Shown here piece after piece: positions 7,307 to 22,986 of a stretch of DNA of 64,000 nucleotides. The stretch covers positions 61,610 through 125,609 of IMG/VR virus record IMGVR_UViG_3300023112_000009; one strand, written 5' to 3'. The stretch comes from a virus. Each line of letters opens with the position of its first letter. The first letter of the stretch is position 1. The notes under the pieces are model-generated. The model was not told the DNA's origin, made no database searches, and saw only the letters and a program-made list of their open reading frames with translations. The position numbers and the translations under genes were made by a program.

Positions 7307-7313
7307 GATATTT

Positions 7314-7341: not shown

Positions 7342-7361
7342 ACAGTACCGGGGGTATTATT

Positions 7362-7436: not shown

Positions 7437-7492
7437 ATATTCTTGTTTTCTCAAAAATGCTAGAAGCTTCTGAGATCCCCTTAAGGGGTGTA

Positions 7493-7572
7493 TGGTTGGC
7501 CCCGCAGGACTCGCACCTGCATTTCCTCCTGTAAATAGGAGGTGTCCTAGCTTGTTTTTAGACGAAAAGCCA
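7493..7572 (-). tRNA. tRNA-like gene with 8-nt anticodon loop
   Basis: Cloverleaf closes fully: acceptor TGGCTTT/GGGGCCA (three G-U pairs), D stem GTCT/GGAC, anticodon stem CCTCC/GGAGG, T arm GCAGG-TGCGAGT-CCTGC, A73, CCA. The anticodon loop TATTTACA has eight bases, so the anticodon is ambiguous (UUA or UAC). The D-loop lacks GG. Confidence 0.55.
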
Positions 7573-7970: not shown

Positions 7971-8059
7971 TGGTGCCGCATCTGGGTAATGCTCCCAGCG
8001 GGGCCTTTACGGCCACGAGGGTTACAGCCTCGGCCCTCTCTTTAGGGGTCTACTACGAC
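7971..8059 (-). tRNA. tRNA-Tyr (GUA)-like gene with non-canonical D and T loops
   Basis: Acceptor GTCGTAG/ATGCGGC, anticodon arm CGAGG-CTGTAAC-CCTCG, long variable arm (GGCC-GTAAA-GGCC), A73 and CCA are present. The T-loop is AGCATTA and the D-loop lacks GG, so the usual elbow contact is lost on both sides. Confidence 0.6.
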
Positions 8060-8151
8060 GTTCGCTCCGCTCACGGAGCTTGAAAATACAATATCCACGA
8101 ACTAGATTTTGCCTTCGACAGTTACTAAAGCTGTCTGAATATTGCATTGTT

Positions 8152-8227
8152 TGGGGTACATAATGGGGTTTGAACCCATGCCGTCTCAGTCACAGTGAGA
8201 TATGCTGCCACCTACACCATATGCACC
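8152..8227 (-). tRNA. tRNA-His (GUG)
   Basis: Loop CTGTGAC on TCTCA/TGAGA; acceptor GTGCATA/TATGTAC; the histidine-specific G-1 pairs with C73; T-loop TTCAAAC; CCA encoded. Confidence 0.92.
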
Positions 8228-9481: not shown

Positions 9482-10369
9482 TTACCAGTCGCACTCGCAG
9501 TCGTCTTCCGGATAGCCGCACTCGCCGCAGTCGGAGTCTTCGCACTCGCCATCACAGTAGGATTCACCGCAAGAACTACAGCAGTCTTCTTCTACCTCAG
9601 GGAACGTGGGAGCGTACAGCGGCTCACTCAGTACCTTGTCTAGCTTGACTTCTTCAAGGACTTCGTAGCGGCAGCAGCGAAGCTTCTGGCAGTCATGGTC
9701 GCTCGGGACGCTCACCGCATCCTTGGGGTTGACCTTAACCAAAAGCAGACGTTGGCCAAAGCCAGATGCGTACCCCTGGGAGCCAATATGGAACCCAGAC
9801 GAGCAGTGGTTGTTCGGGTTGTCATCCACCGAAGAACGATCCATTTCGTGTACTTGACCGACACTGTTGTCGAACGAGTTCGTGTGACAATCCTTAAGGT
9901 CATTGTTCACGCCCTTGTACCCCACGAAACACCCGTCTTCCGTCACGGCCAACCCCTCGTTCTCCAGGAACGTGTACAGTTGTGCTCGCGAGTTGAAGGA
10001 CGGATTATCCATCAGGTTTTCAAGGAACTTCACAAGCGGCTGGAAGTCAAGGCCACGCTGGAAGAAATCCGTAATGCGTCTGCCGATAGCATTGTGCAAC
10101 TCTTCCCCATTGTAGGTGACTTCACCGTACTCGTTGACCACTACACTGCCGTTCGTGTAAGCGTTCAGGGCCTTCGGGATGTTGACCAGGGTAGGCAGTA
10201 CATCGTAGTCCTCAGCGTCGAGAGCTTCGATGATTTTGCCATGGTTCGGATGGGTGGAGCCAAGCATGTGGGTCTGACCATCAAGAACCAAAATGATCGA
10301 CAGATCGTTGGCGATGACAAACCTAGGGGCCTTGGCTTTACGACGGAAGGGGTTGGTTAAAATGCTCAT
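9482..10369 (-). CDS. rIIB: rIIB-like protein with Cys-rich tail
   Basis: 295 aa. The central part follows T4 rIIB: FLENLMDNPSF, ENEGLAVTEDGCFVGYKGV, DCHTNSFDNSVGQ, HCSSGFHIGSQGYASGFG, KVNPKDAVSVPSDH and CRYEVLEEV. T4 rIIB acts with rIIA at the membrane in lysis timing and superinfection exclusion. T4's N-terminal HTH is not evident here. The last 35 or so residues are acidic with about 11 Cys, an extension not known to me from rIIB and possibly metal-binding. It starts 2 nt after rIIA. Confidence 0.85.
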   Translation of the reverse strand: MSILTNPFRRKAKAPRFVIANDLSIILVLDGQTHMLGSTHPNHGKIIEALDAEDYDVLPTLVNIPKALNAYTNGSVVVNEYGEVTYNGEELHNAIGRRITDFFQRGLDFQPLVKFLENLMDNPSFNSRAQLYTFLENEGLAVTEDGCFVGYKGVNNDLKDCHTNSFDNSVGQVHEMDRSSVDDNPNNHCSSGFHIGSQGYASGFGQRLLLVKVNPKDAVSVPSDHDCQKLRCCRYEVLEEVKLDKVLSEPLYAPTFPEVEEDCCSSCGESYCDGECEDSDCGECGYPEDDCECDW

Positions 10370-10371
10370 GA

Positions 10372-12294
10372 TTATGACTTGAGTTGGATGTATTCGATTA
10401 CGTCTTCGACTTTGGCGTAGTCAAGGTCGATGTTGGCAACCAGAGGGTATTGTTCTTTGAATGTGTTAGTGAAGTTCTCAGCCTTAGGCAGAGTCAGGTT
10501 GAACAAGCTAAGGAGTCCATTCCACCTGTAGTTGGTTTCTTCTGCCTTGGTCAGCTTGACCAGATTCGAACTAGCGTCCGACAGACCATCAACAGCGTTC
10601 AGGAACTCGTCAGAGAACTCTCTCGGAACACCATATTGTACCCTAGCTCTTGTGTACTGGTCGGCAGTTTTCACGAAATCTTCCATTTTCTTTCGAGCCT
10701 CGGTCGCAAGATCGTCCAGGCCAAGCTCGGCACGCAGCTTCTCGTAACGCTTTTGAGGAAGACCGTAGACCGACGTATAGCCAAGGCTTACGGCAATTTC
10801 CTGAATTTCGTTAGCGTTGTACTCTCGCCCCATCCAGATGCACTTGTATCCAATACGCTCGATAGCAATAGCGTTAGTAACATCAACGTCTTTCTTGTCA
10901 ACACTATCCCACATATCGCTAACTCGACTACGGTAGCGACAGTTGAGCTTCTTAACATAGGTCCGAGTGCCACTAGCGGTACCATTACTGCGTACCTTTT
11001 TGGGTGCGTCCGGAAGATCCGAAAGCTTAACGGTAACTTCGCCAAAGGTCTCTGCGAATTTCGCAGCGTCATCAATCTTGACTAGGAAGCACTCAGCGTT
11101 GTTACCGTTAAGGTAATGACGCAGGTTTCTCTTTTCTTTGTAGCTAATCTCGCAGTCATCGTTCTTTTGAATGAAGACGTATGTCCTGTCGGCCTTGGGC
11201 TGGAACCTGTGGGCGTGACGATTGATTTCAAGCGTCTTCTTACGATACGCCAATCCAACCGGATACAAAGTGTATGCACCGTCTTCGTGAGTATCAATAC
11301 TCTTTTCGTCTTGGTCGAAATTCACAAGACCACGGAAGGCATCCATTTTGATAATGCGTTCCATTCTGGTCTTGGCATCCTTAACGGTATCCAGTACCGC
11401 TACACAAGCCTCTGCTTCTGCTGTAGTCAAAGCAGCTTGCAGGTTTCCGATAGTCTTCTCGTCGTAGTGAAGTTCTTCACGACTCGGAGTAGGAGTACAA
11501 TCACCAACGTTCATTTCGAGCATCAGCTTAGCAGAATGCCCAAGCCCAGAACGAACTCCTCCACCAGTCGCATTGTAACAAACGTTACCCATAACGATAC
11601 TGATCTCAGAACGAGTGGGCGAAGAATACCCCCGATACAAGGACCAGCCATCACCAGACAGTGCGGGTTCATAATCCGTAAAGTCTAGACGGGCACCAGT
11701 GACGTTCGGACGAAGCTTGAAAAAGGCATACACCTTTTGGGCTTTCTGGTTGAAGTCCCAGATATCCCTTTCGTTAATGTGCAGCTTGATCTCAACACCG
11801 TTCTTTTCGACCGTGACGGTCTTATTCAACAGTGCAATCGTGGGTGCTCCTGCTTCACCTTTGAAGACAGAGTACTCGTACTTCATCCCCTTGAAATAAG
11901 AAGTAAAGGAAAACATGTCCACCAGAGCGAACGGGGTTTTCGAGCCCAGGCCGAAGCCTCCCGTGCATTCGTTGGAACCATTGCGGTTCGACTCGAAATA
12001 CGTAGAGTAAATACCTTCTACGTCTTCCTGCGAGAGACCAGTGCCGTAATCGCGGATCACGAACTCGGGGTCAATCGAGTTGGGAAGGTGAACGTCGAAC
12101 GGCTCAGGGTTTCCTGCATCAGTATGGGAGTCCGCAGCGTTGGTGCTGAGTTCCCGAATGATAGCAGTCATGGGGTCAGAGTACAGATTCTTCGACAGAA
12201 TCTCGAACGCCTGAGCGTTGGCCGCGATCTTGAATGCGGTCTCTTGAAAGTCGCCTGAGCGAACGATGGTGTTTTCTACTTGCTTGATTTCCAT
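10372..12294 (-). CDS. rIIA: rIIA-like GHKL ATPase-fold protein
   Basis: 640 aa. The N-terminal 200 residues are a GHKL (Bergerat) ATP-binding domain: N box RELSTNAADSH near residues 48-57, G1 box RDYGTGLSQED, G2 region GGFGLGSKTPFALVD. In T4 rIIA is a membrane-associated partner of rIIB and protects against the RexAB exclusion system. The length is close to T4 rIIA (725 aa). Adjacency and order with rIIB support the call. Confidence 0.88.
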   Translation of the reverse strand: MEIKQVENTIVRSGDFQETAFKIAANAQAFEILSKNLYSDPMTAIIRELSTNAADSHTDAGNPEPFDVHLPNSIDPEFVIRDYGTGLSQEDVEGIYSTYFESNRNGSNECTGGFGLGSKTPFALVDMFSFTSYFKGMKYEYSVFKGEAGAPTIALLNKTVTVEKNGVEIKLHINERDIWDFNQKAQKVYAFFKLRPNVTGARLDFTDYEPALSGDGWSLYRGYSSPTRSEISIVMGNVCYNATGGGVRSGLGHSAKLMLEMNVGDCTPTPSREELHYDEKTIGNLQAALTTAEAEACVAVLDTVKDAKTRMERIIKMDAFRGLVNFDQDEKSIDTHEDGAYTLYPVGLAYRKKTLEINRHAHRFQPKADRTYVFIQKNDDCEISYKEKRNLRHYLNGNNAECFLVKIDDAAKFAETFGEVTVKLSDLPDAPKKVRSNGTASGTRTYVKKLNCRYRSRVSDMWDSVDKKDVDVTNAIAIERIGYKCIWMGREYNANEIQEIAVSLGYTSVYGLPQKRYEKLRAELGLDDLATEARKKMEDFVKTADQYTRARVQYGVPREFSDEFLNAVDGLSDASSNLVKLTKAEETNYRWNGLLSLFNLTLPKAENFTNTFKEQYPLVANIDLDYAKVEDVIEYIQLKS

Positions 12295-12339
12295 GTGTCT
12301 TTGAGTGTTTGAAGGTTTCCCTTCGCCTTGTGTGAGTAC

Positions 12340-12367
12340 ATTATACCCTGGTTAGCACGTATGTCAA
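12340..12367 (-). promoter_or_regulatory. Promoter of rIIA-rIIB
   Basis: TTGACA (12362-12367), 16-bp spacer ending AGGG, TATAAT (12340-12345), leader of about 40 nt. Confidence 0.8.
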
Positions 12368-12374
12368 GTGATTT

Positions 12375-12500
12375 TTAAGATTGTGATGCGAATAAGTTTG
12401 CCCTTGCCAGCCCGAAAGTCTGTAAACCCAATCGGGACAAGCATTCCAGCACCCCGTCACCAATGACAAAGCACCATTCTTTGTTTTCGAGCTTCTTCAC
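12375..12500 (-). CDS. 41-aa leaderless protein with GTG start
   Basis: GTG at 12500 lies 6 nt after TATACT, exactly where other leaderless genes have ATG. The frame reads KKLENKEWCFVIGDGVLEC and ends just before the rIIA -35 box. Function unknown. The start rests on promoter geometry. Confidence 0.55.
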   Translation of the reverse strand: MKKLENKEWCFVIGDGVLECLSRLGLQTFGLARANLFASQS

Positions 12501-12506
12501 GAGGAT

Positions 12507-12534
12507 AGTATATCCCGTGAATGCCGTCTGTCAA
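12507..12534 (-). promoter_or_regulatory. Leaderless promoter overlapping the end of the NAD operon
   Basis: TTGACA (12529-12534), 16-bp spacer, TATACT (12507-12512). The TGA stop of the gene at 12531-13673 is inside the -35 box. Confidence 0.75.
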
Positions 12535-13673
12535 GTATATAATTCTCTTGTTTTGATGTAATCAGATACAGCAGGAGTTAGGTACTCGTGTTCGTGGGGG
12601 TTGTCGTGCTCTCGTATTTCTGTAGAGCTTAAGTGATCCATGTCGCGGACACTTGACACTGACCAGTTAAGCGTGGCAGAGATTTGATTGTCTTGAATGT
12701 CCATACCCTTGCGTGACATAATCACGAAATCAGTATTGGGCAGACGATCACTTAGCCATTCCACAGACGGATACTGGTGTGCAGTAATCGTCATGTTCCA
12801 AGCGTCAGCACCCAGTACAAAGATAATGTCTTTTGCACCAGCAGTAGTAAGCGTCTGGCGTTTGTCTATAAATCTAGGTGCTTGCGTAAGTAGAGTCGGG
12901 CGACCTTCCACATCCAACATACGCACTCTATGAAGCATATCCTCAATAGAGAGCCCGCCCTTATAGTAGTGTTGTTGTGAAATCTCGTACAAGCAACTCT
13001 CCACGCTCAGGTGTTTTTGAGTAGGAGGATTGAATGCCCCAGGATAGATCGTGGGATAATCCCTAACGTAATCCATCACCCGTTGGAACTTGCCTTTGTG
13101 ATAAACCAAAGGATTGAGCGGCTTCAAAAGGATCATGCGTTCAGCATCAGAGACACCAGGAGCATACAACACATCGATATTGTGAGTCTCAAGGGAATCC
13201 TCAATACTATTAATGTGTTCAACCCAAGTGTCGGTGCTCAGCATACACGCATTCATGAGCCACTGTACACGATCACTTACAATGCGGCCAACCCACTCAC
13301 GGTCGGCACAGGCAGCTACCGAGAAGTGCATGTACGCTTGCCATTCTCTTGTGGCAATGTATATCCATCCATGCGACGGTCGATCCTGGTAGTGTGCTCC
13401 GGTAATAGCTAATCCAAACAGACTGGGACTATGTTCTGTTCGTCCCAACACTTTAAACAGGTTCTCATGAGCTAATCTCTTAGCGTTTTCAAGTGATACC
13501 GCACGCATACCTGCGGAGCGACCAGTAGCATCATACGGACAGTCAATGCCTAGAATCGTTTTGGATGCACCGGGTACTCGTAGATACTTAGAGCTAAACT
13601 CTAGACCTAGACCAACCTCCGTGATGATACCTCGCCACGAAGATTGATTAAGTTGATTGCAAAATTGTTCCAT
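12531..13673 (-). CDS. Predicted bifunctional NMN deamidase (PncC/CinA-like) - NadD-like adenylyltransferase
   Basis: 380 aa. Residues about 10-140 resemble the CinA C-terminal/PncC fold (EVGLGLEFSSKYLRVPGASK, SLFGLAITGAHYQDRPSHGWIYIAT); PncC turns NMN into nicotinate mononucleotide. Residues 207-380 carry the nucleotidyltransferase signature YPGAFNPPTQKHLS (211-222), LGADAWN and LSSTEIRE near 350, typical of NadD/NMNAT, which adenylylate the mononucleotide. It overlaps the end of nadV by 26 nt, so NadV, deamidation and adenylylation could run in series; host NadE would finish NAD. Catalytic competence of the first domain is unproven. Confidence 0.8.
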   Translation of the reverse strand: MEQFCNQLNQSSWRGIITEVGLGLEFSSKYLRVPGASKTILGIDCPYDATGRSAGMRAVSLENAKRLAHENLFKVLGRTEHSPSLFGLAITGAHYQDRPSHGWIYIATREWQAYMHFSVAACADREWVGRIVSDRVQWLMNACMLSTDTWVEHINSIEDSLETHNIDVLYAPGVSDAERMILLKPLNPLVYHKGKFQRVMDYVRDYPTIYPGAFNPPTQKHLSVESCLYEISQQHYYKGGLSIEDMLHRVRMLDVEGRPTLLTQAPRFIDKRQTLTTAGAKDIIFVLGADAWNMTITAHQYPSVEWLSDRLPNTDFVIMSRKGMDIQDNQISATLNWSVSSVRDMDHLSSTEIREHDNPHEHEYLTPAVSDYIKTRELYT

Positions 13674-15204
13674 CGATTTTGATTATGTCTGTTTCTGTGA
13701 CGGGGAGTGCGGCGTTGACCCGAATCTCATCGAGCGTCATGATGTTCATGGGGACACCATTATAGAGAACGTCTTGCAATAGGTTTTCCTTAAGTCTGGT
13801 CTCGTGAACTGTCTCCAGCTTAAGGGTTTTGAATTCGCCCCGTGAGTTACGGAAGACACCCAAGCGTCCACGCTTGGAGTTCTTTGTAGGATCGGTCTTC
13901 GGTTGCTTGAAGATATCGACCCACTCGCCATTGATTTGCATAGCAGAACACTTGATAGCGAAGCACTGCGTGTCTCGCGTGAAGTCTTGGAGGAGTCCCC
14001 CTCCAGAGCCGAACGCAATGTTGTCGGCAGAGATACCGTTAACCTTGAACGCTTCAAGAACATCGGCAACAGTGTGTCCCCAGTGGTCACACCATACGTC
14101 ATTCTCTGCTTGTGTTTTATACTCGTACCACTTAATGCCGTCGCCTTGGATCATGCGAACATAATCTGGCAGAACTCGGAAGCCTTTCTCGTTAACAGTA
14201 GTCCCGAAGACTTCTGCCAGGGCTTCAAAAACATCAATATCAATCTTGGGGAGCGTACCAGAATCGGGACGGAACACGACGGTTCCCTCGCGATTGCGGA
14301 TCATATCCATAATGTCTTCGTTGCCGCCGATGACGTTGTGAATAAAGCCCATGGTATCGAACGAGTCGATGACGATGGCAACCAAGCCTGTCGGATGAGC
14401 AGTGAGCACCTTGCGTACAATGTCGGCCTCGCCCTCGGGTCCACCCGAAGTCATAACAGAGTGCTCTGTTGCGGGGATGGAGAACCCAGGCATATCCCAT
14501 TGTGTCTTGCTGTCTGCCAGTCGCATCGACATGGGAAGTGCTTTGGGGCCATAGTAGTCCCGCAACAGGGGAAGTGCGGCCATGGTATCGGTGCCCATGA
14601 AACTCGTAAGGTGAGCAGCACCAGACAGTGCGGCAGTTTCGAGCGACGAAACACCACGCATGCCAAAATCATGAAGCTTAAACGGCAGGCCAGCAAGGTC
14701 GCCAGTCTCTTCCAGGTAGCGAGCGATGATCTTTTTGACCTTACGACTAGAGCTTGCAACGGTCGTGGGCGACCACATTTGCATAAGCAAAGTCTCCAGG
14801 AAGTTCGTTAGCCACGGCACCTGCGGATCGGTGTTCTCGATAGTGAATAGTGCTGTGCCTGTCGGCACGACCGTCCCCTCGGGGATAGCAGTAATCCTTA
14901 CGGGAAGGCGTCCTTGGCACTTGTCGAGAATGTATTCCCAGCCTTCGCGGTTGAAGACTTCTTCGCTACCGAAGTGTGCCGTACAGATAGCAGCGGCTTC
15001 CTCAATCTTATCTCGCGTAACAACCTGACCAGTCAGGTAACGCGAGATAATGTACTGTAGTCCGAAGAACACGGTCTCATCAAAACGAGCACCGACTCGC
15101 GGTTCGCAATACGAGTAAACGGTTTCAAGACCGTCAGGATAAAAACCGTGATGCGAATACTTGTAGGAATCCGATCCAAATGCTACTATGTTAAAATTAT
15201 TCAT
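13648..15204 (-). CDS. nadV: Nicotinamide phosphoribosyltransferase
   Basis: 518 aa from the ATG at 15204 (MNNFNIVAFGSDSYKYSHHG). Class features: the YKYSHHGFYPDG entry, FKLHDFGMRGVSS, PATEHSVMTS, VAIVIDSFD, VFRPDSG, GDGI and FGSGGGLLQ, all typical of NAMPT/NadV, which makes NMN from nicotinamide and PRPP. This recycles nicotinamide and can restore NAD when host defences degrade it. Upstream codons of the long frame belong to the HNH gene, whose stop overlaps this start by 8 nt. Confidence 0.93.
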   Translation of the reverse strand: MNNFNIVAFGSDSYKYSHHGFYPDGLETVYSYCEPRVGARFDETVFFGLQYIISRYLTGQVVTRDKIEEAAAICTAHFGSEEVFNREGWEYILDKCQGRLPVRITAIPEGTVVPTGTALFTIENTDPQVPWLTNFLETLLMQMWSPTTVASSSRKVKKIIARYLEETGDLAGLPFKLHDFGMRGVSSLETAALSGAAHLTSFMGTDTMAALPLLRDYYGPKALPMSMRLADSKTQWDMPGFSIPATEHSVMTSGGPEGEADIVRKVLTAHPTGLVAIVIDSFDTMGFIHNVIGGNEDIMDMIRNREGTVVFRPDSGTLPKIDIDVFEALAEVFGTTVNEKGFRVLPDYVRMIQGDGIKWYEYKTQAENDVWCDHWGHTVADVLEAFKVNGISADNIAFGSGGGLLQDFTRDTQCFAIKCSAMQINGEWVDIFKQPKTDPTKNSKRGRLGVFRNSRGEFKTLKLETVHETRLKENLLQDVLYNGVPMNIMTLDEIRVNAALPVTETDIIKIDGTILQST

Positions 15205-15742
15205 TGAAGTTAGTTTTGGCGTATTCGCCAAATAATTCACGAGCTTTAGCGTCGTATGCTCGTGCTGCTTTTACGGGATTATCAAAATTACCAAGATAGA
15301 TTGCTTTGCCATTATGTCTTATTTCGGCCTGCCATCTATTTTTACTGTTTTTACTAATGCCTTTATATCCGGAAGATTTTGCCTTAGAGTTAAATTGTTG
15401 TTCTTGAACAGTAGCTAATCGCAGATTACGAATATCATTATCATGAATACATCCATTAACATGATCCACAGTTTTGCCGTCTGGTATTACTGTATTGAGG
15501 GCAGCAACCATAATCGCACGATGCATATAGATTGCTACTGGTTTATCAGAACTAATTGTTCTAAAAACCAATTGCACATATCCATAACGAGTTAATCGTC
15601 CTTTAAGTAACAGTGGACGCGGACGTTTGCCAGATTGACAATATTCACTATAGATGTTGCCGCTATACTTATTAACCGTGTATTTACCAGCATGTAATGC
15701 TTCTAAAAACAACGCATCGTTTTGTATGGGGCTCCGATTCAT
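15197..15742 (-). CDS. HNH endonuclease with AP2 DNA-binding domain
   Basis: 181 aa. HNH_3-type core MHRAIMVAAL ... KTVDHVNGCIHDNDIRNLRLAT, followed by an AP2-like domain GYKGISKNSKNRWQAEIR with YLGNFDNPVKAARAYDAKA. This combination is a standard phage homing endonuclease. It sits inside the NAD operon between the Nudix gene and nadV with overlapping starts and stops, so it rides the operon transcript. Confidence 0.9.
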   Translation of the reverse strand: MNRSPIQNDALFLEALHAGKYTVNKYSGNIYSEYCQSGKRPRPLLLKGRLTRYGYVQLVFRTISSDKPVAIYMHRAIMVAALNTVIPDGKTVDHVNGCIHDNDIRNLRLATVQEQQFNSKAKSSGYKGISKNSKNRWQAEIRHNGKAIYLGNFDNPVKAARAYDAKARELFGEYAKTNFNE

Positions 15743-16164
15743 TACTGTTGCGTGTAATCGAGGTAGTCTTGAATGATTTGCTTATGATCAAAGCACAGTA
15801 CTAGAGTACCGTTGTAGTATTGATCAAGTGCGGTTTGCGGATCAATCACAATCGCATTCTTTGCATCGTCAGCACCAACAGGAGTGCCTTCTGCTTGAGC
15901 GTAATGTGTAATACTTACAGCGTGACCTCGCGGATCGCGGTCGGGAGCGTCATAGATGCCAGCTTCTACAACATTGTTAATTTTCAAGCCAGTTTCTTCC
16001 TTGGCTTCACGGATGGCAGCGTCTTGGCAGGTTTCACCTACGTCAACGCAACCTCCCGGTAGTGCCCAGCCATGGGGCTCATTCTTACGCTCGATCAGTA
16101 CGATACCATCTTCAATTTCGATGATGATATCGACTGTGAGCATGGGTGTTTCGGGTTTTGTCAT
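15742..16164 (-). CDS. Nudix hydrolase
   Basis: About 140 aa starting MTKPETPMLTVDIII (ATG 16164; upstream codons of the longer frame overlap the phosphoesterase gene). The Nudix box is complete: GCVDVGETCQDAAI followed by REAKEETGL. The family cleaves nucleoside diphosphates linked to another moiety; the setting favours ADP-ribose or NAD-related substrates, as in known phage NadM-Nudix pairs, but substrate cannot be read from sequence. Confidence 0.9.
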   Translation of the reverse strand: MTKPETPMLTVDIIIEIEDGIVLIERKNEPHGWALPGGCVDVGETCQDAAIREAKEETGLKINNVVEAGIYDAPDRDPRGHAVSITHYAQAEGTPVGADDAKNAIVIDPQTALDQYYNGTLVLCFDHKQIIQDYLDYTQQ

Positions 16165-16166
16165 GA

Positions 16167-16889
16167 TTACCAGTGTGTGATGATTGATTCGCCTGTCCAA
16201 ATCGTGTAGAGTCTGGACTCGATGATTGGGCAACACGCCCATTCCATCTGACCAATCATACCCCGGTCTTCGCTATGATGATGCCCAAAAAAGCAAAAAC
16301 TTGGCTGAAACTTATCTACAATCGCTTGCAGTAGTTGCCGATTGCCCTTGCTCTCTGTATGATTACGTTTATAGCGATCATCAGAATATGGAATACACAT
16401 TGGATGCTCATGGGTGAACAGTGCATCGATTGTACCCTCAACATTGTCCAAAGTGTTTTGAACCTGTTGATAAGTAATATCTTCCTGTCGCCACCAAGAG
16501 GAACCTTCGACACGACGATACTTGTCAATCGAAGCAGCCCCACCGAAGAACATAGCTCTATAGCCATCAACCTCGATCACACTACCTCGCGGCATGTGTG
16601 TCCAATCGGGTTGCCATGCTCCACCATCCATTTCAAGCATGTCAAAGTTCTCATGGTTGCCGTCAATCCAAAGCTTCTCAGCGTTGTCGTAGACTTCCAT
16701 TTCCTCAGGAGAGAGAAAACTCTTACTTGCCTTAAATGGCTTATCTTTACTGTGGGGCCATGTACCGTAACCAAAATCCCCCACCTGGACAATATGCGTA
16801 ATGTCAGAGTGCTGACGGATCGCTCTCGCAATCGTCACGTTCATGTCTTCCCAGAAAGCATGAACATCGCCAAGGATGAGGAACTTCAT
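16167..16889 (-). CDS. Calcineurin-like metallophosphoesterase
   Basis: 240 aa from the ATG at 16889 (MKFLILGDVHAFW). Metal-binding motifs are in order: GDVH, GDFG, GNHEN, a histidine in THEHP and FGHHHSED. The gene ends 2 nt before the Nudix start. The family hydrolyses phosphodiesters or monoesters; a nucleotide or RNA end-processing role in the NAD/ADP-ribose operon is plausible. Confidence 0.85.
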   Translation of the reverse strand: MKFLILGDVHAFWEDMNVTIARAIRQHSDITHIVQVGDFGYGTWPHSKDKPFKASKSFLSPEEMEVYDNAEKLWIDGNHENFDMLEMDGGAWQPDWTHMPRGSVIEVDGYRAMFFGGAASIDKYRRVEGSSWWRQEDITYQQVQNTLDNVEGTIDALFTHEHPMCIPYSDDRYKRNHTESKGNRQLLQAIVDKFQPSFCFFGHHHSEDRGMIGQMEWACCPIIESRLYTIWTGESIITHW

Positions 16890-16939
16890 TGTATCAGTAG
16901 TATTAGTGCGGCAATGTGTGCGAATTGGTCTGCTGCAAT

Positions 16940-17230
16940 TCATGACGGTATTAGTGAGGCGACCATAGCAGACCCAATTAGGATGATGATGACGATGCCA
17001 GCGATCCCGCCAAAGATCACGCCGACCTCGGGTTTCTTCTCAACTATGACCGTCACCACTTTAGGCTTATCCATTTCAAGCCACGCCAAAGCTTTCTGTA
17101 AGGCCATGACTTGTCCACGGTGATTGTCAATAGTTGGCGTATGTTGTTTTTTGTTGTCGGTTTCAGAAGCTACTACAGCCTCCGCTCGTGCCAATTCGTT
17201 TTGAAGAAACCGCTCGGCGTTTTCGTGCAT
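16940..17230 (-). CDS. Small tail-anchored membrane protein
   Basis: 96 aa. A soluble, probably coiled N-terminal part (HENAERFLQNELARAEAVV) is followed by one C-terminal membrane helix (VIFGGIAGIVIIILIGSAMV). Could be a tail-anchored or holin-like protein; no family recognised. Its ATG shares a base with the stop of the macrodomain gene. Confidence 0.7.
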   Translation of the reverse strand: MHENAERFLQNELARAEAVVASETDNKKQHTPTIDNHRGQVMALQKALAWLEMDKPKVVTVIVEKKPEVGVIFGGIAGIVIIILIGSAMVASLIPS

Positions 17231-17655
17231 CAAGGCAATTTGCAGATAATTGTTTCCGGTGCGATATCCTCAAGCATGTGGACAACAACGTCCCAATCGC
17301 CTCCAGCGAGACCGCAGCCCATCATGTGGGGTATGTACAATTGGATGTCGTTTGCCCTGGTGAAGTCACGAGCCTGACGGAAAGCTTGGCACAATCCGTT
17401 GTAATCCGTTTGTACACCGCCACCTACGTTCTGTTGACCAGCCAGATTGGCCACGAATTGAGCGTCACCGATTGTTACCAGTTGACAGTCTCCCACTTGC
17501 CAATCGTCCTTGTCCACGTAGACATTGTAGACGTTTTCCCACTCTCTGCGAATTTGAAGGGCAAGCCCAGCACCCATGACCCCAAGGCAATTGACCTGAT
17601 GACAGATGACGGCAGGGCCAGTCACATCCAGGATGTTTTTCTCAATCAGTTTCAT
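17230..17655 (-). CDS. Macrodomain protein, ADP-ribose-1''-phosphate phosphatase-like
   Basis: 141 aa, single macrodomain. Signature VICHQVNCLGVMGAGLALQI and the late glycine-rich IPHMMGCGLAGGDW match the Poa1p-like branch, which binds ADP-ribose and often removes the 1'' phosphate left by tRNA splicing chemistry. It fits the NAD/ADP-ribose theme of the operon. Overlaps both neighbours by a few bases. Confidence 0.85.
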   Translation of the reverse strand: MKLIEKNILDVTGPAVICHQVNCLGVMGAGLALQIRREWENVYNVYVDKDDWQVGDCQLVTIGDAQFVANLAGQQNVGGGVQTDYNGLCQAFRQARDFTRANDIQLYIPHMMGCGLAGGDWDVVVHMLEDIAPETIICKLP

Positions 17656-17846
17656 TTGTCTTCTTTGGGGTAATCGTTGCAGTAGAAGCCATCACCTTTA
17701 AAGATAACGCCAACATTCCTGCTGATCTGTCGTTGTAACTTCATCTTACCACACGATGGGCACTTACGCTTGGGGTTTTCCGACATTCTTTGAATGAATT
17801 CGTGCTCAGCATCACAAGCACTGCATTTGTATTCGTATGTAGGCAT
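17652..17846 (-). CDS. FmdB-type zinc-ribbon protein
   Basis: 64 aa: MPTYEYKCSACDAEHEF, then CPSCGKMKLQRQIS and FKGDGFYCNDY. Two CxxC knuckles and the ending FKGxGFYxxDY are diagnostic of the FmdB family of small putative regulators. Confidence 0.85.
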   Translation of the reverse strand: MPTYEYKCSACDAEHEFIQRMSENPKRKCPSCGKMKLQRQISRNVGVIFKGDGFYCNDYPKEDK

Positions 17847-17990
17847 CTAGATGTATTGCTGACAAATCCAGCCACCGAGATGGGTTTTCATAACCCAAAA
17901 ACCACCTTCTCGATGGTTGGGATCACCAGCAATCACAGGAAGTTCTGGATCTAGCTGAGACAATTGTTCAATCAATTCTCGTACTTTCAT
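17847..17990 (-). CDS. 47-aa hypothetical protein (MKVRELIEQL type)
   Basis: Starts MKVRELIEQLSQLDPELPVI and ends GGWICQQYI; proteins with this helix plus LDPxLPV start are common small phage proteins of unknown role. Its stop abuts the FmdB gene start. Confidence 0.75.
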   Translation of the reverse strand: MKVRELIEQLSQLDPELPVIAGDPNHREGGFWVMKTHLGGWICQQYI

Positions 17991-18001
17991 ATCTTTAAAT
18001 T

Positions 18002-18187
18002 CTATCTTTCGAGCAGTTTGAGGTCAGTAATGTTCCACGAAACGAAGCCCTCGATGGGCTTGTCTAGACGGACTCCTCCGGGGATATCATCATACATTCT
18101 GATGATGGTTCTGGTGCTTCTACCTCGGCGTACCTTCCGCCCAACGAGATCACTATCCGAGTTGTTTATGTCGTTTTTGTTTGTCAT
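18002..18187 (-). CDS. 61-aa hypothetical protein
   Basis: The core VGRKVRRGRSTRTI then MYDDIPGGVRLDKPIEGFVSW looks like a small beta-barrel. No function known. Part of the operon running from 19098. Confidence 0.75.
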   Translation of the reverse strand: MTNKNDINNSDSDLVGRKVRRGRSTRTIIRMYDDIPGGVRLDKPIEGFVSWNITDLKLLER

Positions 18188-18233
18188 TTTTGGATGACCG
18201 TGCTGGTGCGTATTCTACACGATTGTCATTCAT

Positions 18234-18482
18234 TTACAGCGGGATGACGTGGAACTCGCAATCAGACCTATGACTTAAACCAGTACAGGTGCATTGAGCA
18301 AACTTGTAACACATGAGGTCTGAAATCATGTCGCTTTCCTCTTGACTTTGAACGTTATCCTCGGTTAGCCACATGCGATTAAGGGCCTTGTGAACGGTCC
18401 TGTACTCACGTCTGTTAAGCTTTACTTCGATGATTGTGGCAATAGAGCGTTCCAGTAGTTCTTTTACGTGTTGATTGAACAT
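18234..18482 (-). CDS. 82-aa hypothetical protein with Cys/His C-terminus
   Basis: Helical N-terminus, then CYKFAQCTCTGLSHRSDC, a possible metal site. Starts on the last base of the HNH-like gene. Function unknown. Confidence 0.7.
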   Translation of the reverse strand: MFNQHVKELLERSIATIIEVKLNRREYRTVHKALNRMWLTEDNVQSQEESDMISDLMCYKFAQCTCTGLSHRSDCEFHVIPL

Positions 18483-18892
18483 TAGATTTTATCTCTTTTC
18501 AAGCGAATCCACCTAATTAGGTGACGCCGGGTAGTAGGGCCACGAAACTCGTGTCCATCGCCAAGTTCGCGATGTACCAAATTGTGACATTCTACGCAGA
18601 GCCTAATCGTGGGTCTTGCTGATTGTGTGGCCAATCGCTCCTCATTAGAGACAAATGACGCTTTAGGAACTAAGTGATGACGAGTAATGAGTTCGCTGTT
18701 TGACTTGAACGTTTTTAAGCAGGCCGCACACGGTATCATGCTCCTAGCGGTGTTTGAACGCACCTTTCTGAGCTTTTCACTAAGCTTCTTAATGAGAGGG
18801 CGTACGTCCTGGTTTCTGGTTCGTTTTAAAGACTGCACAATGGCATCGAGTTCAACCTCGTCCAGTTTGGTCTTGATGGCAATGTTGTCCAT
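18482..18892 (-). CDS. HNH nuclease-like protein
   Basis: 136 aa. A helical N-terminal half precedes CAACLKTF ... TRHHLVPKA ... RLCVECHNLVHREL, a Cys4 HNH fold with the HHLVPK active-site form. Probably a DNA nuclease; could be a homing enzyme or a packaging-type HNH. Overlaps the winged-helix gene by one base. Confidence 0.8.
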   Translation of the reverse strand: MDNIAIKTKLDEVELDAIVQSLKRTRNQDVRPLIKKLSEKLRKVRSNTARSMIPCAACLKTFKSNSELITRHHLVPKASFVSNEERLATQSARPTIRLCVECHNLVHRELGDGHEFRGPTTRRHLIRWIRLKRDKI

Positions 18893-19098
18893 TATGGTTT
18901 AGGGCAAGCCTGATACTCTCCAAAACTACCATGAGTGATGTAGTTAGAGTTAATCAGGAAGGAAAGGTCGCATTGCGTGCGATGGAGTTGGGTATCTAGC
19001 TCTAGAGCGATCTCGCTAGCGGTCATGGGGGCACCACCATCCTCTAGTAGCTCGATGATCTTCTGTTGCCTCAGGGGGAGGTCTTTGGATGTGTACAT
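18892..19098 (-). CDS. Winged-helix DNA-binding protein, first gene of the NAD operon
   Basis: 68 aa from the ATG at 19098, 5 nt after TATACT, so the longer start at 19116 is rejected. LRQQKIIELLEDGGAPMTAS followed by EIALELDTQLHRTQCDLSFL reads as a winged helix-turn-helix. Being first in the 13-gene unit, it could autoregulate it through the palindromic promoter spacer. Confidence 0.8.
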   Translation of the reverse strand: MYTSKDLPLRQQKIIELLEDGGAPMTASEIALELDTQLHRTQCDLSFLINSNYITHGSFGEYQACPKP

Positions 19099-19103
19099 GT
19101 CAC

Positions 19104-19131
19104 AGTATAGCCGCATTAGCGGCTAAGTCAA
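19104..19131 (-). promoter_or_regulatory. Leaderless promoter of the 19.1-12.5 kb operon
   Basis: TTGACT (19126-19131), TATACT (19104-19109), 5 nt to ATG. The spacer is a perfect palindrome, GCCGC-TAAT-GCGGC, and the -35 contains the stop of the gene upstream. Confidence 0.82.
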
Positions 19132-19262
19132 GCTACTTTCCTGTAAAAGACAACATAAGAACGGCCAGTCGAGAAGTCTTCATCTTCTACACGAACCACG
19201 ATTTGGAGAACCCAGTCGCCATCTGGGGTTTGATAGAAGTCGGCGTGAGGGATTGTAGTCAT
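19128..19262 (-). CDS. 44-aa hypothetical protein
   Basis: Starts MTTIPHADFYQTPDGDWVLQ, a small beta-rich protein ending FYRKVA. Its TGA stop is part of the next -35 box. Function unknown. Confidence 0.65.
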   Translation of the reverse strand: MTTIPHADFYQTPDGDWVLQIVVRVEDEDFSTGRSYVVFYRKVA

Positions 19263-19280
19263 GTTATTTTTAAGCGAATC

Positions 19281-19451
19281 CTAATCCCTATAGAGAACAA
19301 AAGAAGTCTTACAGGAACAACCAGTAGAAAGACAGGCAGGACAGGTGTAGGCGAGGGCGTTCGTGTGACTAGAGTCTACCACGATTTTGAGACCACAGCA
19401 AGAACATTCGTACGTTTCATCTTCATTGCTTCGTTCTTCTTGATTCTTCAT
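19281..19451 (-). CDS. Small zinc-ribbon protein
   Basis: 56 aa from MKNQEERSNEDE. YECSCCGLKI and YTCPACLSTGCSC give two Cys knuckles. The upstream in-frame start at 19478 is less likely. Function unknown. Confidence 0.65.
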   Translation of the reverse strand: MKNQEERSNEDETYECSCCGLKIVVDSSHTNALAYTCPACLSTGCSCKTSFVLYRD

Positions 19452-19484
19452 ATTGACCACAGGTGTACACACACTCACTATAAG

Positions 19485-19691
19485 TTAACGGAGGGCCTGC
19501 GTAGTGACGTGGTAGGATGCTTCTGCCAGTTTCGCAGCAGCGGCAGCAGAATCAGCCGTTTCTATGTCCCTCAGGATCACAGTAAGCCTGCCCAGCCGCT
19601 CCTCAGCCGTCTTAGCACTGAGCCCTTGTTCCTTTTGTAGTAGGATCTGTTCCCATAGAAGATTGATCTCTTGTCTTAGTTGTTCTTTCAT
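19485..19691 (-). CDS. 68-aa helical protein, leaderless
   Basis: MKEQLRQEINLLWEQILLQK onward is highly helical with Ala-rich repeats, likely a coiled coil. ATG 6 nt after TATCAT. Function unknown. Confidence 0.75.
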   Translation of the reverse strand: MKEQLRQEINLLWEQILLQKEQGLSAKTAEERLGRLTVILRDIETADSAAAAAKLAEASYHVTTQALR

Positions 19692-19697
19692 GTGGGA

Positions 19698-19726
19698 ATG
19701 ATACGCTTTAAAACGTACTCTGTCAA
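19698..19726 (-). promoter_or_regulatory. Leaderless promoter
   Basis: TTGACA (19721-19726), 17-bp spacer, TATCAT (19698-19703), 6 nt to ATG. TACG/CGTA arms flank the spacer centre. Confidence 0.65.
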
Positions 19727-19952
19727 GGTAAAAATCTTTTTAACTTCCAGCTTGACTTCCTGTGGTTTGAGTGTACTATGAATACTCACGCAGAGACGGA
19801 CTGCCGATGCATGAGGTGAGGGGTAGTACCCTGGATACACTGCTTGAGTGGCTGAAGTTAAACGTAGAGGATAGTCAGACCAAAGGCTTGAAATGACAGA
19901 AATGGGGTTTGCGGGTATCAAACCGTCTCATTGATGTTTTCCTTGTTTTTCC

Positions 19953-19981
19953 TTGACATAGGGCGTATTTCGTCGTATAAT
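19953..19981 (+). promoter_or_regulatory. Promoter of the initiator-like tRNA
   Basis: TTGACA (19953-19958), 17-bp spacer, TATAAT (19976-19981), 24 nt before the tRNA. Both hexamers are consensus. Confidence 0.9.
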
Positions 19982-20005
19982 GAGGTACTTGAAAACACAT
20001 AGTGT

Positions 20006-20081
20006 CGCGGGGTGGAGCAGTAGGTAGCTCGCCAGACCCATAATCTGGAGGTCGTAGGTTCGAATCCTACCCCCGCTACCA
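20006..20081 (+). tRNA. Initiator-like tRNA-fMet (CAU) with C33
   Basis: The first 26 bases follow bacterial initiator tRNA (CGCGGGGTGGAGCAG, GGTAGCTCG) with a C1-U72 mismatch. Anticodon loop CCCATAA has C33 in place of U33. The anticodon stem is CCAGA/TCTGG, without the three G-C pairs typical of initiators. T-loop TTCGAAT; CCA encoded. It has its own promoter and is isolated from the other tRNAs. Confidence 0.85.
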
Positions 20082-20124
20082 ATACACCAGCCATGACCCA
20101 TGAGCCCGACCGTGGCTGGTTTCG

Positions 20125-20232
20125 TAGGGGCAACGTAAAGAAGTGGACAACCAGGATTGGCAGCCTATCAACAATCCTGACAAAACCACAGCCGTCAGGC
20201 TGACGGAAGCGGTCGCAACAAGATCGCCCCTA
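20125..20232 (+). ncRNA. Structured RNA candidate downstream of the initiator-like tRNA
   Basis: A closing stem TAGGGGC (20125-20131)/GCCCCTA (20226-20232) encloses GTGG (20143-20146)/CCAC (20186-20189) with AGGATTG (20153-20159)/CAATCCT (20172-20178), CAGCC/GGCTG (20189-20202) and GCGGTC/GATCGC (20209-20227). A terminator follows at once. A 36-aa ORF overlaps but looks unconvincing. Confidence 0.5.
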
Positions 20233-20234
20233 AA

Positions 20235-20265
20235 AGGACCAGACATTAGTCTGGTCCTATTTTAT
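20235..20265 (+). terminator. Rho-independent terminator
   Basis: Ten-base arms AGGACCAGAC/GTCTGGTCCT with loop ATTA, followed by ATTTTAT. Ends the tRNA transcript. Confidence 0.9.
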
Positions 20266-20293
20266 AGCAAAGAAGTAAGGACGCCACGCTACT

Positions 20294-20782
20294 ATGGATC
20301 GCTTTTGGAACAAGGTACAGAAACTACCGGGGGTCAATACCTGCTGGTTGTGGACCGCTGGAAAAGACAGATATGGATACGGACAGTTTAAGCTGGACGG
20401 TAAGGTTGTACGTGCTCATCAGGTTAGCTGGAAAATCGAGAAGCGTGTGAATCCTTCTTACTTATGTCATACTTGTGACAATCGTGCCTGTGTGAACCCA
20501 GCACACTTGTACGAAGGTAGTCACGCTAGCAACATGAGCGACAAAAAGCACCGCAACCTTACATGGAGTAAATATGACCCTCATGTGATTAGACGTATTC
20601 GTAGGAAGTATGCCGTAGGTTTTTCAAGTGGACAACTCTCGAAAGAATTTAATATCCCTAGGAGCACCGTACTCAATATTCTAGACGGTAAGCTCTGTAG
20701 GAGCACCGGGGGTCCAATTAGAGATCCTAATTTTAGATACTATGGCAATCGCTTTAAAAAAGCCATTCCTAGAAAATCGTAG
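20294..20782 (+). CDS. HNH homing endonuclease
   Basis: 162 aa. MDRFWNKVQKLPG, then TCWLWTAGKDRYGYGQF, RAHQVSWKIE and LCHTCDNRACVNPAHLYEGS give the HNH core; the C-terminal SSGQLSKEFNIPRSTVLNIL is a helix-turn-helix. Homologue of 8231-8689 and source type of the remnant at 6678. Lies alone on the plus strand beside the tRNA unit. Confidence 0.9.
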   Translation: MDRFWNKVQKLPGVNTCWLWTAGKDRYGYGQFKLDGKVVRAHQVSWKIEKRVNPSYLCHTCDNRACVNPAHLYEGSHASNMSDKKHRNLTWSKYDPHVIRRIRRKYAVGFSSGQLSKEFNIPRSTVLNILDGKLCRSTGGPIRDPNFRYYGNRFKKAIPRKS

Positions 20783-20824
20783 CAGTGTGGCGAAACGCCT
20801 TACTATGCTCAAAATTCCATCAGT

Positions 20825-20963
20825 GTCAGTTCTCCCCTTACTGTATCCGGGGAGGCAGGGATGAAGCCTGCCACTTATGTCCCCTCTGGGGAACCCCGAA
20901 TGGGGTGACTTCTCCGCTCAAGGCGGCTACTCGGGTTGGGCGAAGTCACTACTCCCAACGCGG
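20825..20963 (-). ncRNA. Structured RNA candidate with its own promoter
   Basis: Reading from the promoter at 20970-20997: stem GTGACTTC/GAAGTCAC (arms 20905-20912 and 20942-20949) enclosing CCGC/GCGG, then CCCC/GGGG (20894-20905), TCCCC/GGGGA (20880-20892), GGCAGG/CCTGCC (20854-20872) and CTCCCC/GGGGAG (20832-20854). Five or more stems in 140 nt and no ORF argue for a non-coding RNA. Confidence 0.6.
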
Positions 20964-20969
20964 TAACAG

Positions 20970-20997
20970 AGTATACCCTGTTATTCTAGAAAGTCAA
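20970..20997 (-). promoter_or_regulatory. Promoter of the minus-strand structured RNA
   Basis: TTGACT (20992-20997), 16-bp spacer ending AGGG, TATACT (20970-20975). The -35 lies in the last codons of the upstream gene. Confidence 0.8.
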
Positions 20998-21280
20998 GCA
21001 AAGGATCCGAAATCTTATGCCCTTCCTGAAGTAAATTGTAATGGCCAGTGCAAAAGTTCTTGCCGTCAAGCAAAAAAGACGCTTCTTGTTTGCACCTGAT
21101 ATGGAAGCATTCCACAGGTTTTTCCAGCATTTGCGTTAAATGATCTCGCAATCGCTCGGCCTCTTCTCTTTCGAGCATACGATAGACGTAATCGGCATCA
21201 TCCGACTGAATTTCTATCCTAAGCTCTAAACGATTCTTATGCCAATCGTTTTGGACGGTGATCGTTTCTTGTAAGTACAT
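20981..21280 (-). CDS. 99-aa hypothetical protein, leaderless
   Basis: ATG at 21280, 5 nt after TATGAT. An N-terminal beta part (MYLQETITVQNDW ... LELRIEI) and helix EREEAERLRDHLTQML precede CFHIRCKQ ... FCTGHY, a small Cys/His site. Function unknown. Confidence 0.75.
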   Translation of the reverse strand: MYLQETITVQNDWHKNRLELRIEIQSDDADYVYRMLEREEAERLRDHLTQMLEKPVECFHIRCKQEASFLLDGKNFCTGHYNLLQEGHKISDPLLDFLE

Positions 21281-21285
21281 GCCCA

Positions 21286-21314
21286 ATCATACCCTTAGGA
21301 TCTAACCCTGTCAA
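21286..21314 (-). promoter_or_regulatory. Leaderless promoter
   Basis: TTGACA (21309-21314), 17-bp spacer ending AGGG, TATGAT (21286-21291), 5 nt to ATG. Confidence 0.7.
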
Positions 21315-21451
21315 CATGTTTCTAATAGTTTCTTATACTCTATGTTATTCTTTATTTTCAAGCATCTTCTGGGGTTGGCCGTAAGGGCAACCTTATATAG
21401 TACAGAGAACGCTTGGTTTTTCTGACTTTCCGAGATTTATTTAGATTCTAT

Positions 21452-21479
21452 TTGACTTTCCAGGACTTAGAGCTATACT
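21452..21479 (+). promoter_or_regulatory. First promoter of the plus-strand array
   Basis: TTGACT (21452-21457), 16-bp spacer, TATACT (21474-21479). Divergent from the promoter at 21286. A 4-codon frame (MFDQ, stop) precedes the AT-hook gene in the leader. Confidence 0.75.
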
Positions 21480-21531
21480 CTCCATGTTCGATCAATGAAA
21501 CGCCCCAACGGGCACAACCAAACACAAGACT

Positions 21532-21786
21532 ATGACCACCACGAAAAAGACCACGAAAAAGAATTCCAAGCCCGTTGCCACCACTATCAAGCGAGGCCGG
21601 GGCCGTCCCGCTAGCTTCCCCGCTGACGTGGCAACCCGTGCGATGCTCTCCACGATCCCCGTTGACAGCATCACCCAATTGCACGAACTCAAGACGAAAT
21701 GGGGTGTCAACCTCAATCAAGCCCTGGCCCGCGTGCTACAACGGGCACACAAGGACACTTTCCGCTCCCGCTCGAAAAAGAGCTAA
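21532..21786 (+). CDS. AT-hook / ribbon-helix-helix-like DNA-binding protein
   Basis: 84 aa. A Lys-rich N-terminus with the AT-hook core RGRGRPASFP is followed by a short strand-helix-helix region (VDSITQLHELKTKWGVNLNQ). Probably a nucleoid-type or regulatory DNA-binding protein. First gene of the array, closed by a strong terminator. Confidence 0.8.
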   Translation: MTTTKKTTKKNSKPVATTIKRGRGRPASFPADVATRAMLSTIPVDSITQLHELKTKWGVNLNQALARVLQRAHKDTFRSRSKKS

Positions 21787-21800
21787 GCCCACAGGAACAG

Positions 21801-21825
21801 GCCACCCAATCGGGTGGCTTTTTTC
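21801..21825 (+). terminator. Rho-independent terminator
   Basis: GCCACCC-AATC-GGGTGGC followed by TTTTTT. Confidence 0.92.
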
Positions 21826-21842
21826 TTTTCTCCCGATTCTGT

Positions 21843-21870
21843 TTGCATTCCTCCCAATTGTGGGTATACT
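21843..21870 (+). promoter_or_regulatory. Promoter of the DUF932-like gene
   Basis: TTGCAT (21843-21848), 16-bp spacer, TATACT (21865-21870), leader of about 48 nt. Confidence 0.75.
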
Positions 21871-21918
21871 GTTTGTGAATCGAGGGAACGCCCTCACAAC
21901 CCTAACCAACACAAAGCC

Positions 21919-22986
21919 ATGAGCACTGATATCACAGGATTTTTCAACGCCCGCACCGATACGGATCAAGCGGCCAAAAGCATCTTCTTGGGTGTCGAGG
22001 GTGAAACCTCAGACCGCATCATTTCCGATCTTCCCACGTTTTTGGAGACTGCCGGGAGAGACTACGGCATCCTTCGGAAGCCCGCACTGGTTCGCGATCC
22101 CTTCGGTGGGGTTGACGCCCAAGGGAACGTCTGTGAGGCGATTCGCGAGGTGGACAATCAATATCACCTCTCCCGCACGAGTGACGGGCGAGTCGTGAGC
22201 CCGCACACTGTCACGAAACAGTACGCCCCTCTCACTTTGATGGACGTGGCAACCGAAATCAAGCCCTGGCTTGACGCGGGTTGGGTGACTCCCGATGCCG
22301 TTTTCAGCGGCAAAAACGAAAGTCTCGAATTGCTCTGTCTCAGGATGGATGCAAACGGTATGCTTCCCAACGGGGAGCAATGGCAACACTACATTATCTT
22401 GCGTCTTCCGCACGCTGCGGGCGGCAAGTGCAAGGGTCAAGTGGTGAATTTCCGTCCCCAGTGTTCCAACGTGTACGCTGCAATCGGACGTGGAAACGAG
22501 TTCACGATCTCTCACAGGATTTCGAGCAAGATGGACGACGCGGAACGTCAAGCCGCAATGCTCGCCCGTGTCAAGATGGCTAAGAACGCCTGGAAGACCG
22601 CACAGGATCACATTGAGGTTCTGGCCCGCAAGGTCAACGCATGGAGCGGGAAAGCTCTCACGGTGACTCAGGCTGTCAACCTCACGAACACCCTTCTGGG
22701 GATCAAGTCTCTTGACGACGCTAGCGGTGTCGCTAAGAACAAACAGGAAGCGATCCTAAACGGGTTCGATCTTCCGGAGTTCGGAACGCACGGGGCCACC
22801 CTTTACGATTGGGTGAACGCTGTCACGTTCTACACGTCAAGCCCTAACTCACCCGTAGTGGCGAAATCTACGGTCAACCCGATTGATCGTATGATCCGCA
22901 ACGTGGATCCCCAGGGTACGGGGTTCAAGATGGAAGACGCGGCCCAAAAGCTTGCGGCCCGATTCCTCGGGGGTGACTTCCAGTAA
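21919..22986 (+). CDS. DUF932-like phage/plasmid protein
   Basis: 355 aa from MSTDITGFFNARTDTD. Features fit the DUF932 family found on phages and plasmids: VTKQYAPLTLMDVATEIKPW, a central beta domain with QHYIILRLPHAAGGK, QCSNVYAAI, then helices with ISHRISSKMDDAERQ. The family is thought to act in DNA metabolism, but activity is not established. The largest gene of the array; the next promoter hairpin follows its stop. Confidence 0.75.
   Translation: MSTDITGFFNARTDTDQAAKSIFLGVEGETSDRIISDLPTFLETAGRDYGILRKPALVRDPFGGVDAQGNVCEAIREVDNQYHLSRTSDGRVVSPHTVTKQYAPLTLMDVATEIKPWLDAGWVTPDAVFSGKNESLELLCLRMDANGMLPNGEQWQHYIILRLPHAAGGKCKGQVVNFRPQCSNVYAAIGRGNEFTISHRISSKMDDAERQAAMLARVKMAKNAWKTAQDHIEVLARKVNAWSGKALTVTQAVNLTNTLLGIKSLDDASGVAKNKQEAILNGFDLPEFGTHGATLYDWVNAVTFYTSSPNSPVVAKSTVNPIDRMIRNVDPQGTGFKMEDAAQKLAARFLGGDFQ

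What the first reader, a model, noticed from the sequence alone, without database searches (positions are those of the whole stretch)
12531..19098. NAD salvage operon with a PncC-NadD-like fusion, Nudix and macrodomain
nadV is followed by a protein joining a CinA/PncC-like domain to a NadD-like domain, in an operon with Nudix hydrolase, phosphoesterase and macrodomain genes. NadV plus adenylyltransferase restores NAD against NAD-depleting defences; adding a deamidase would route NMN to NaMN and NaAD. I know no described phage fusion of this type.
Basis: partly seen in the sequence, partly recalled or inferred. Interest (0 to 1): 0.75.

Follow-up and report, generated by a model that had tools for sequence, protein, structure and literature searches.

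The report
Phage NAD-salvage enzyme with pseudo-deamidase domain
A bacterial virus carries a small gene cluster for rebuilding the cofactor NAD, whose last enzyme is joined to a former NMN-cutting domain that appears to have kept its binding site and lost its cutting residues; this two-part protein family recurs in other large phages and in planctomycete bacteria, and I found no description of it.

Summary
On the minus strand, nadV (13648-15240) overlaps a 380-aa gene (12531-13673). Its N-terminal half is a distant CinA/PncC domain and its C-terminal half an NMN/NaMN adenylyltransferase (AlphaFold pLDDT 87; Foldseek hits human NMNAT, NadD and CinA). Nudix, metallophosphoesterase and macrodomain genes lie upstream. 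The deamidase reading is not supported: the Ser/Lys dyad essential in characterised PncC is replaced (Ser to Val20, Lys to Arg52), and no NadE was found in the 125-kb record. What stays is the phosphate-binding set: Gly35, Ser37, Tyr47 and Arg125 match PncC residues and are invariant in 28 of 28 fusion proteins, while the dyad lysine is kept in none. I found the fusion in 17 distinct phage loci, including jumbo phages, and in Planctomycetota chromosomes. nadV is adjacent in six phages and elsewhere in five more; Nudix often sits beside it. Best explanation: an amide-route NAD-rebuilding cassette (NadV makes NMN, the C-domain makes NAD) with a non-catalytic NMN-binding domain for capture or sensing. 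The literature survey I read lists only NadM and NadR as phage partners of NadV, so this would be a third, unassayed architecture. It is a new variant of a known kind, not a new system.

The parts
12531..13673 (-). Two-domain protein, 380 aa: N-terminal CinA/PncC-like pseudo-deamidase domain plus C-terminal NMN/NaMN adenylyltransferase
13179..13673 (-). N-terminal PncC-like domain (residues 1-165 as cut for the profile). Phosphate-binding set Gly35, Ser37, Tyr47, Arg125 kept; catalytic Ser to Val20, Lys to Arg52
12534..13061 (-). C-terminal nucleotidylyltransferase domain (about residues 205-380): T/HxGH-type motif TQKH (218-221), SSTEIR (349-354)
13648..15240 (-). nadV, nicotinamide phosphoribosyltransferase (likely true start near 15204, MNNFNIV)
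15742..16242 (-). Nudix hydrolase, intact Nudix box, closest NCBIfam models are the Nudix half of NadM (likely true start near 16167)
16167..16943 (-). Calcineurin-like metallophosphoesterase
   Evidence: conserved at 72% in L025
17230..17655 (-). Macrodomain protein (phrog_335, DarG-like)
15197..15742 (-). HNH-AP2 homing-endonuclease-like gene between the Nudix gene and nadV; probably an insertion, not part of the pathway
16940..17233 (-). 97-aa protein with a hydrophobic C-terminal segment; relatives beside the same cluster in L006 and L025

Best explanation
This is a phage NAD-rebuilding cassette of the amide route. NADases cut NAD to nicotinamide and ADP-ribose. The stand-alone Nudix enzyme may split ADP-ribose to ribose-5-phosphate and AMP, and the host would turn the former into PRPP. 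NadV joins nicotinamide and PRPP to NMN. The C-terminal domain of the fusion adenylylates NMN to NAD. The N-terminal domain descends from the PncC fold, keeps the residues that grip the NMN phosphate and has lost the Ser/Lys deamidase dyad. I therefore read it as a non-catalytic NMN-binding domain, probably dimeric, that captures NMN or senses it and sets the activity of the attached adenylyltransferase, and may shield NMN from the host deamidase. Shown by sequence and model: gene order, domain folds, residue losses and retentions. Inferred: every activity, NMN as ligand, the regulatory or capture role, and the link to defence.
For: Domain folds: AlphaFold of the window protein (pLDDT 87.1, pTM 0.84) and of L009 (89.9, 0.90); Foldseek to human NMNAT 1nup (1.8e-6) and M. 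abscessus NadD 5deo (4.0e-6), and to CinA 6mr3, 4ct8, 2a9s with probability 1.00; L009 to CinA at 3e-6. Residues: in 28 fusions against 28 canonical PncC domains, PncC Ser is 28/28 Ser versus T23, V2, A1, S1 (one row is truncated there); PncC Lys is 28/28 Lys versus T12, L11, R3, Q2; Gly, Ser, Tyr and Arg of the phosphate site are 28/28 in both sets. These are the residues with published roles in A. tumefaciens CinA. C-domain invariants include the H of T/HxGH, G288, D290, S350 and R354. Context: nadV adjacent in window, L006, L025, L009, L028, L037, and elsewhere in five more records; Nudix near the fusion in window, L006, L025, L009, L037, L030, L031. No NadE and no PRPP-synthetase-type (Adps/Prs) gene in the window's record, which argues against both the deamido route and NARP1.
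Against: No biochemistry exists. The direct sequence link of the window N-domain to PncC is weak. Several fusion-bearing jumbo phages lack a detectable nadV (L036, L040, L042, LR745208), so the protein can work without it. Planctomycetota copies show no nadV nearby. The ribose-binding loop of PncC (TGIAGP) is largely replaced, so the ligand may not be NMN. Records may be fragments, so absences are not proof.
Confidence: 0.6

Rival explanations
1. The N-domain is an active deamidase with a rearranged active site, so the protein turns NMN into NaMN and then NaAD, and the host NadE finishes NAD.
For: PncC fold and phosphate site kept; Thr sits at the Ser position in 23 of 28 relatives; T91-G92 of the window matches the PncC T105-G106 pair; a host NadE could supply the last step.
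Against: Window has Val and Arg at the dyad; S31A and K63A are inactive in AtCinA; Lys absent in all 28; no NadE in the record; fungal CinA with comparable Ser and Lys losses is described as needing both back for activity.
Confidence: 0.1
2. The N-domain binds another nucleotide, such as an ADP-ribose-derived immune signal, NAD or an NAD adduct, acting as a sponge or a new hydrolase rather than an NMN sensor.
For: The ribose loop differs from PncC and a new conserved RGxHR motif appears in the main clade; phages do encode proteins acting on cyclic ADP-ribose signals.
Against: The invariant residues are those that hold a nucleotide monophosphate in PncC; fusion to an adenylyltransferase and the nadV linkage point to NMN.
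Confidence: 0.15
3. The N-domain is a decaying relic or a mere dimerisation scaffold.
For: Catalytic residues lost; in the A. tumefaciens CinA dimer the site is shared between subunits.
Against: Known dead E. coli CinA paralogues lost the phosphate residues, the opposite of the full conservation here across phages and planctomycetes.
Confidence: 0.1
4. The cluster serves ordinary NAD supply for a large phage rather than counter-defence (a rival about role, not mechanism; it can be true together with the best explanation).
For: nadV is common in phages (1933 records; 22-33% of medium and jumbo phages).
Against: Nudix and macrodomain partners handle ADP-ribose products typical of NADase attack (inference).
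Confidence: 0.3

Closest known systems
Phage NAD salvage by NadV plus NadM or NadR (called NARP2 for the NAMPT plus NMN-adenylyltransferase route, from my own knowledge)
   Same: NadV followed by an NMN adenylyltransferase; Nudix activity present; linked to ADP-ribose-handling genes
   Different: The adenylyltransferase is NadD/NMNAT-type fused to a PncC-like domain, not NadM or NadR; the Nudix domain is a separate gene
CinA/PncC NMN deamidase
   Same: Fold and phosphate-binding Gly, Ser, Tyr, Arg
   Different: Ser/Lys dyad and ribose loop lost; fused to an adenylyltransferase instead of COG1058
NadD / eukaryotic NMNAT
   Same: Fold, T/HxGH and SSTxIR motifs; best solved match is human cytosolic NMN/NaMN adenylyltransferase
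   Different: Far diverged; below the NCBIfam cut-off; N-terminal extra domain
NARP1 (Adps plus Namat)
   Same: A NAMPT-family enzyme in a phage NAD-rebuilding operon
   Different: No Adps/Prs-type gene found; an adenylyltransferase is present, which NARP1 does not need
Uncultured Caudovirales phage protein A0A6J5RR79 and planctomycete homologues
   Same: Apparently the same two-domain architecture (full-length fold match; alignments)
   Different: Unassayed; planctomycete copies sit outside nadV loci

Membership tests
PncC NMN deamidase | CinA fold | tested here: met
   Foldseek probability 1.00 to 6mr3, 4ct8, 2a9s; hhalign through relatives
PncC NMN deamidase | Catalytic Ser31/Lys63 dyad | tested here: not met
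   Val20 and Arg52 in the window; Lys 0 of 28
PncC NMN deamidase | Phosphate-binding Gly46, Ser48, Tyr58, Arg145 | tested here: met
   28 of 28 fusions
NMN/NaMN adenylyltransferase (NadD/NMNAT) | Nucleotidylyltransferase fold with T/HxGH and SSTxIR motifs | tested here: met
NMN/NaMN adenylyltransferase (NadD/NMNAT) | Score over curated family cut-off | tested here: not met
   TIGR00482 37.6 bits against 112; CTP_transf_like 15.6 against 21. Relatives L004 and L009 pass the CTP_transf_like cut-off
NMN/NaMN adenylyltransferase (NadD/NMNAT) | Makes NAD from NMN or NaAD from NaMN | not testable with these tools
   needs assay
Phage NadV plus NMN-adenylyltransferase salvage (NARP2-type) | NAMPT-family gene with NMN adenylyltransferase gene | tested here: met
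   overlapping nadV and fusion genes
Phage NadV plus NMN-adenylyltransferase salvage (NARP2-type) | Restores NAD and overcomes NADase defence | not testable with these tools
   needs infection assays
NARP1 | Adps (PRPP-synthetase family) gene present | tested here: not met
   PF13793 absent from the 125-kb record, controls 14/14; the record may be incomplete
   PF02540 absent in the window record and in six of seven others; host NadE not excluded

The most novel reading that the evidence does not exclude
A third, undescribed architecture of phage NMN adenylyltransferase: an NMNAT permanently joined to a PncC-derived pseudo-deamidase that senses or captures NMN, widespread in large phages and shared with planctomycetes (fold matches hint at giant viruses too), so that NAD rebuilding is controlled by its own substrate and NMN is kept from host deamidation.
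Probability: 0.4. Interest if true: 0.65.

Novelty: new variant of a known kind. Interest (0 to 1): 0.5.

Why it matters
Phages that rebuild NAD defeat many NADase defences, and the survey of viral NAD systems that I read names only NadM and NadR as partners of NadV. A recurrent fusion of an NMN adenylyltransferase to a dead NMN deamidase would add a third type that annotation pipelines miss, and would be a pseudoenzyme reused as a metabolite-binding module. The conservation pattern (binding site kept, dyad lost) gives a sharp test.

Tried and rejected
tblastn of the fusion against annotated phages at E 1e-3 found nothing; at E 10 it gave one true relative. Direct PDB sequence search gave only glycyl-tRNA synthetase noise. 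L010 is plain NadD in a different NAD cluster, and L024 and L026 match only in the C-terminal half, so all three were left out. A deamido route was rejected on residues and missing NadE. NARP1 was rejected for lack of Adps. A cyanobacterial paper on NMNAT-C was read and is unrelated. Arabidopsis At2g01220 was recalled as a possible plant homologue; no paper was found and eukaryotic genomes are not held, so it is not used. The original NARP1/NARP2 paper is not held, so the NARP2 definition rests on my own knowledge.

Full report
Observation. The minus strand from about 17655 down to 12531 holds macrodomain, a 97-aa protein with a hydrophobic C-terminal segment, metallophosphoesterase, Nudix, HNH-AP2, nadV and the fusion, tightly packed, followed by rIIA and rIIB (rIIB named by order and by L006/L025 synteny). 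The fusion start (13673) lies inside the nadV end (13648), which suggests coupled translation. The window belongs to a 125,609-base virus record; a second record (IMGVR_UViG_3300027996_001813) is identical over the 6.6-kb cluster.

What the fusion is. The C-terminal half is a NadD/NMNAT-type nucleotidylyltransferase (TIGR00482 E 2e-9; Foldseek 1nup E 1.8e-6, NadD 5deo 4.0e-6). The N-terminal half has no direct family hit. The link to PncC runs through relatives: L004, L007 and L009 show weak Pfam CinA matches, the chromosomal copy of Lacipirellula passes the Pfam CinA cut-off narrowly (23.7 against 23.5 bits), the main-clade profile matches canonical PncC with hhalign probability 97.4 and E 9.6e-12, and the window-clade profile matches the main clade (94.6, 6.5e-8). 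AlphaFold models of the window protein and of L009 both find CinA structures.

Distribution. Alignments of successive relatives opened the family: L006 (50% identical, 183-kb phage), L025 (about 60%, a 158-kb contig binned as Hydrogenophaga but bearing rIIA and rIIB beside the cluster, so probably a phage), and a main phage clade in records up to 485 kb. Planctomycetota chromosomes carry the same architecture (five full-length and one partial strong match among 199 sampled genomes), as does one Pseudomonadales MAG. The tree puts the three window-clade sequences on a very long branch apart from the main phage clade, with the cellular sequences as a group of their own; it is midpoint-rooted, so direction of transfer is not resolved. 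BFVD holds a full-length fold match in an uncultured Caudovirales phage and weaker ones in Terrestrivirus and a marseillevirus.

Context. nadV is adjacent to the fusion in window, L006, L025, L009, L028 and L037 and present elsewhere in the records of L031, L035, L038, L039 and L041: 11 of 17 loci, against 22-33% of medium and jumbo phages reported to carry NadV (binomial P 0.007 at 33%, not corrected for kinship). A Nudix gene is near in many. A metallophosphoesterase-like gene follows the fusion in L036 and L041 by sequence motif.

Catalytic residues. Published mutants of A. tumefaciens CinA show S31 and K63 essential for deamidation, and G46, S48, Y58 and R145 as phosphate binders (PMC5384747). 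In a joint alignment of 28 fusions and 28 canonical PncC domains the binders are invariant in both sets; the Ser becomes Thr in 23, Val in 2 (the window and L025), Ala in L006, Ser in L028; the Lys is never kept and is Arg in the window clade. hhalign offers a slightly different register at the Ser motif for the main clade; in neither register does the window keep a Ser. The canonical set was chosen by its active-site motif, so its own 28/28 at the Ser is partly by construction; the fusion counts are not. Dead E. coli CinA paralogues lost the phosphate residues, while fungal CinA with S31 to Ala and K63 to Arg kept the tyrosine (PMC3855486). The pattern here is therefore retained binding with lost chemistry, not general decay.

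Pathway. No NadE and no Adps/Prs family gene was found in the window record, with all 14 control genomes ringing. This favours NMN to NAD directly. The Nudix protein carries an intact Nudix box and its best NCBIfam models are the Nudix half of NadM, so the functions of phage NadM appear to be divided here between a free Nudix protein and the fusion. The survey of viral NAD systems names only NadM and NadR as phage NMN adenylyltransferases (PMC9503650).

Verdict. All activities remain inferred.

Noticed in passing
window 15197-15742: HNH-AP2 homing-endonuclease-like gene inserted between Nudix and nadV; L006 has a different HNH-like gene at the same place (3840-4421), and L028 has an inserted gene between nadV and the fusion.
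   Followed up: partly
L025 (NZ_JAILWB010000012.1), 6106-6834: A gene directly after the fusion looks like a tRNA-His guanylyltransferase (Thg1-like) by its sequence; not tested. The contig, binned as Hydrogenophaga, carries rIIA and rIIB and is probably phage.
   Followed up: partly
L006 5998-7578: This fusion has about 140 extra C-terminal residues of unknown nature.
   Followed up: no
G214 (record of L041): This 447-kb phage has NadV, the fusion, NadE and a PRPP-synthetase-family gene at separate places.
   Followed up: no
L042 744-1190: A shortened fusion (148 aa) lacking most of both domains, either an internal deletion or an assembly fault.
   Followed up: no
window 1719-8226 and 20006-20081: Fifteen tRNA genes; in the stretch 10000-22000 the lone plus-strand tRNA-Met is the only DNA similar to known phages (88% to Erwinia and Salmonella phages).
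   Followed up: partly
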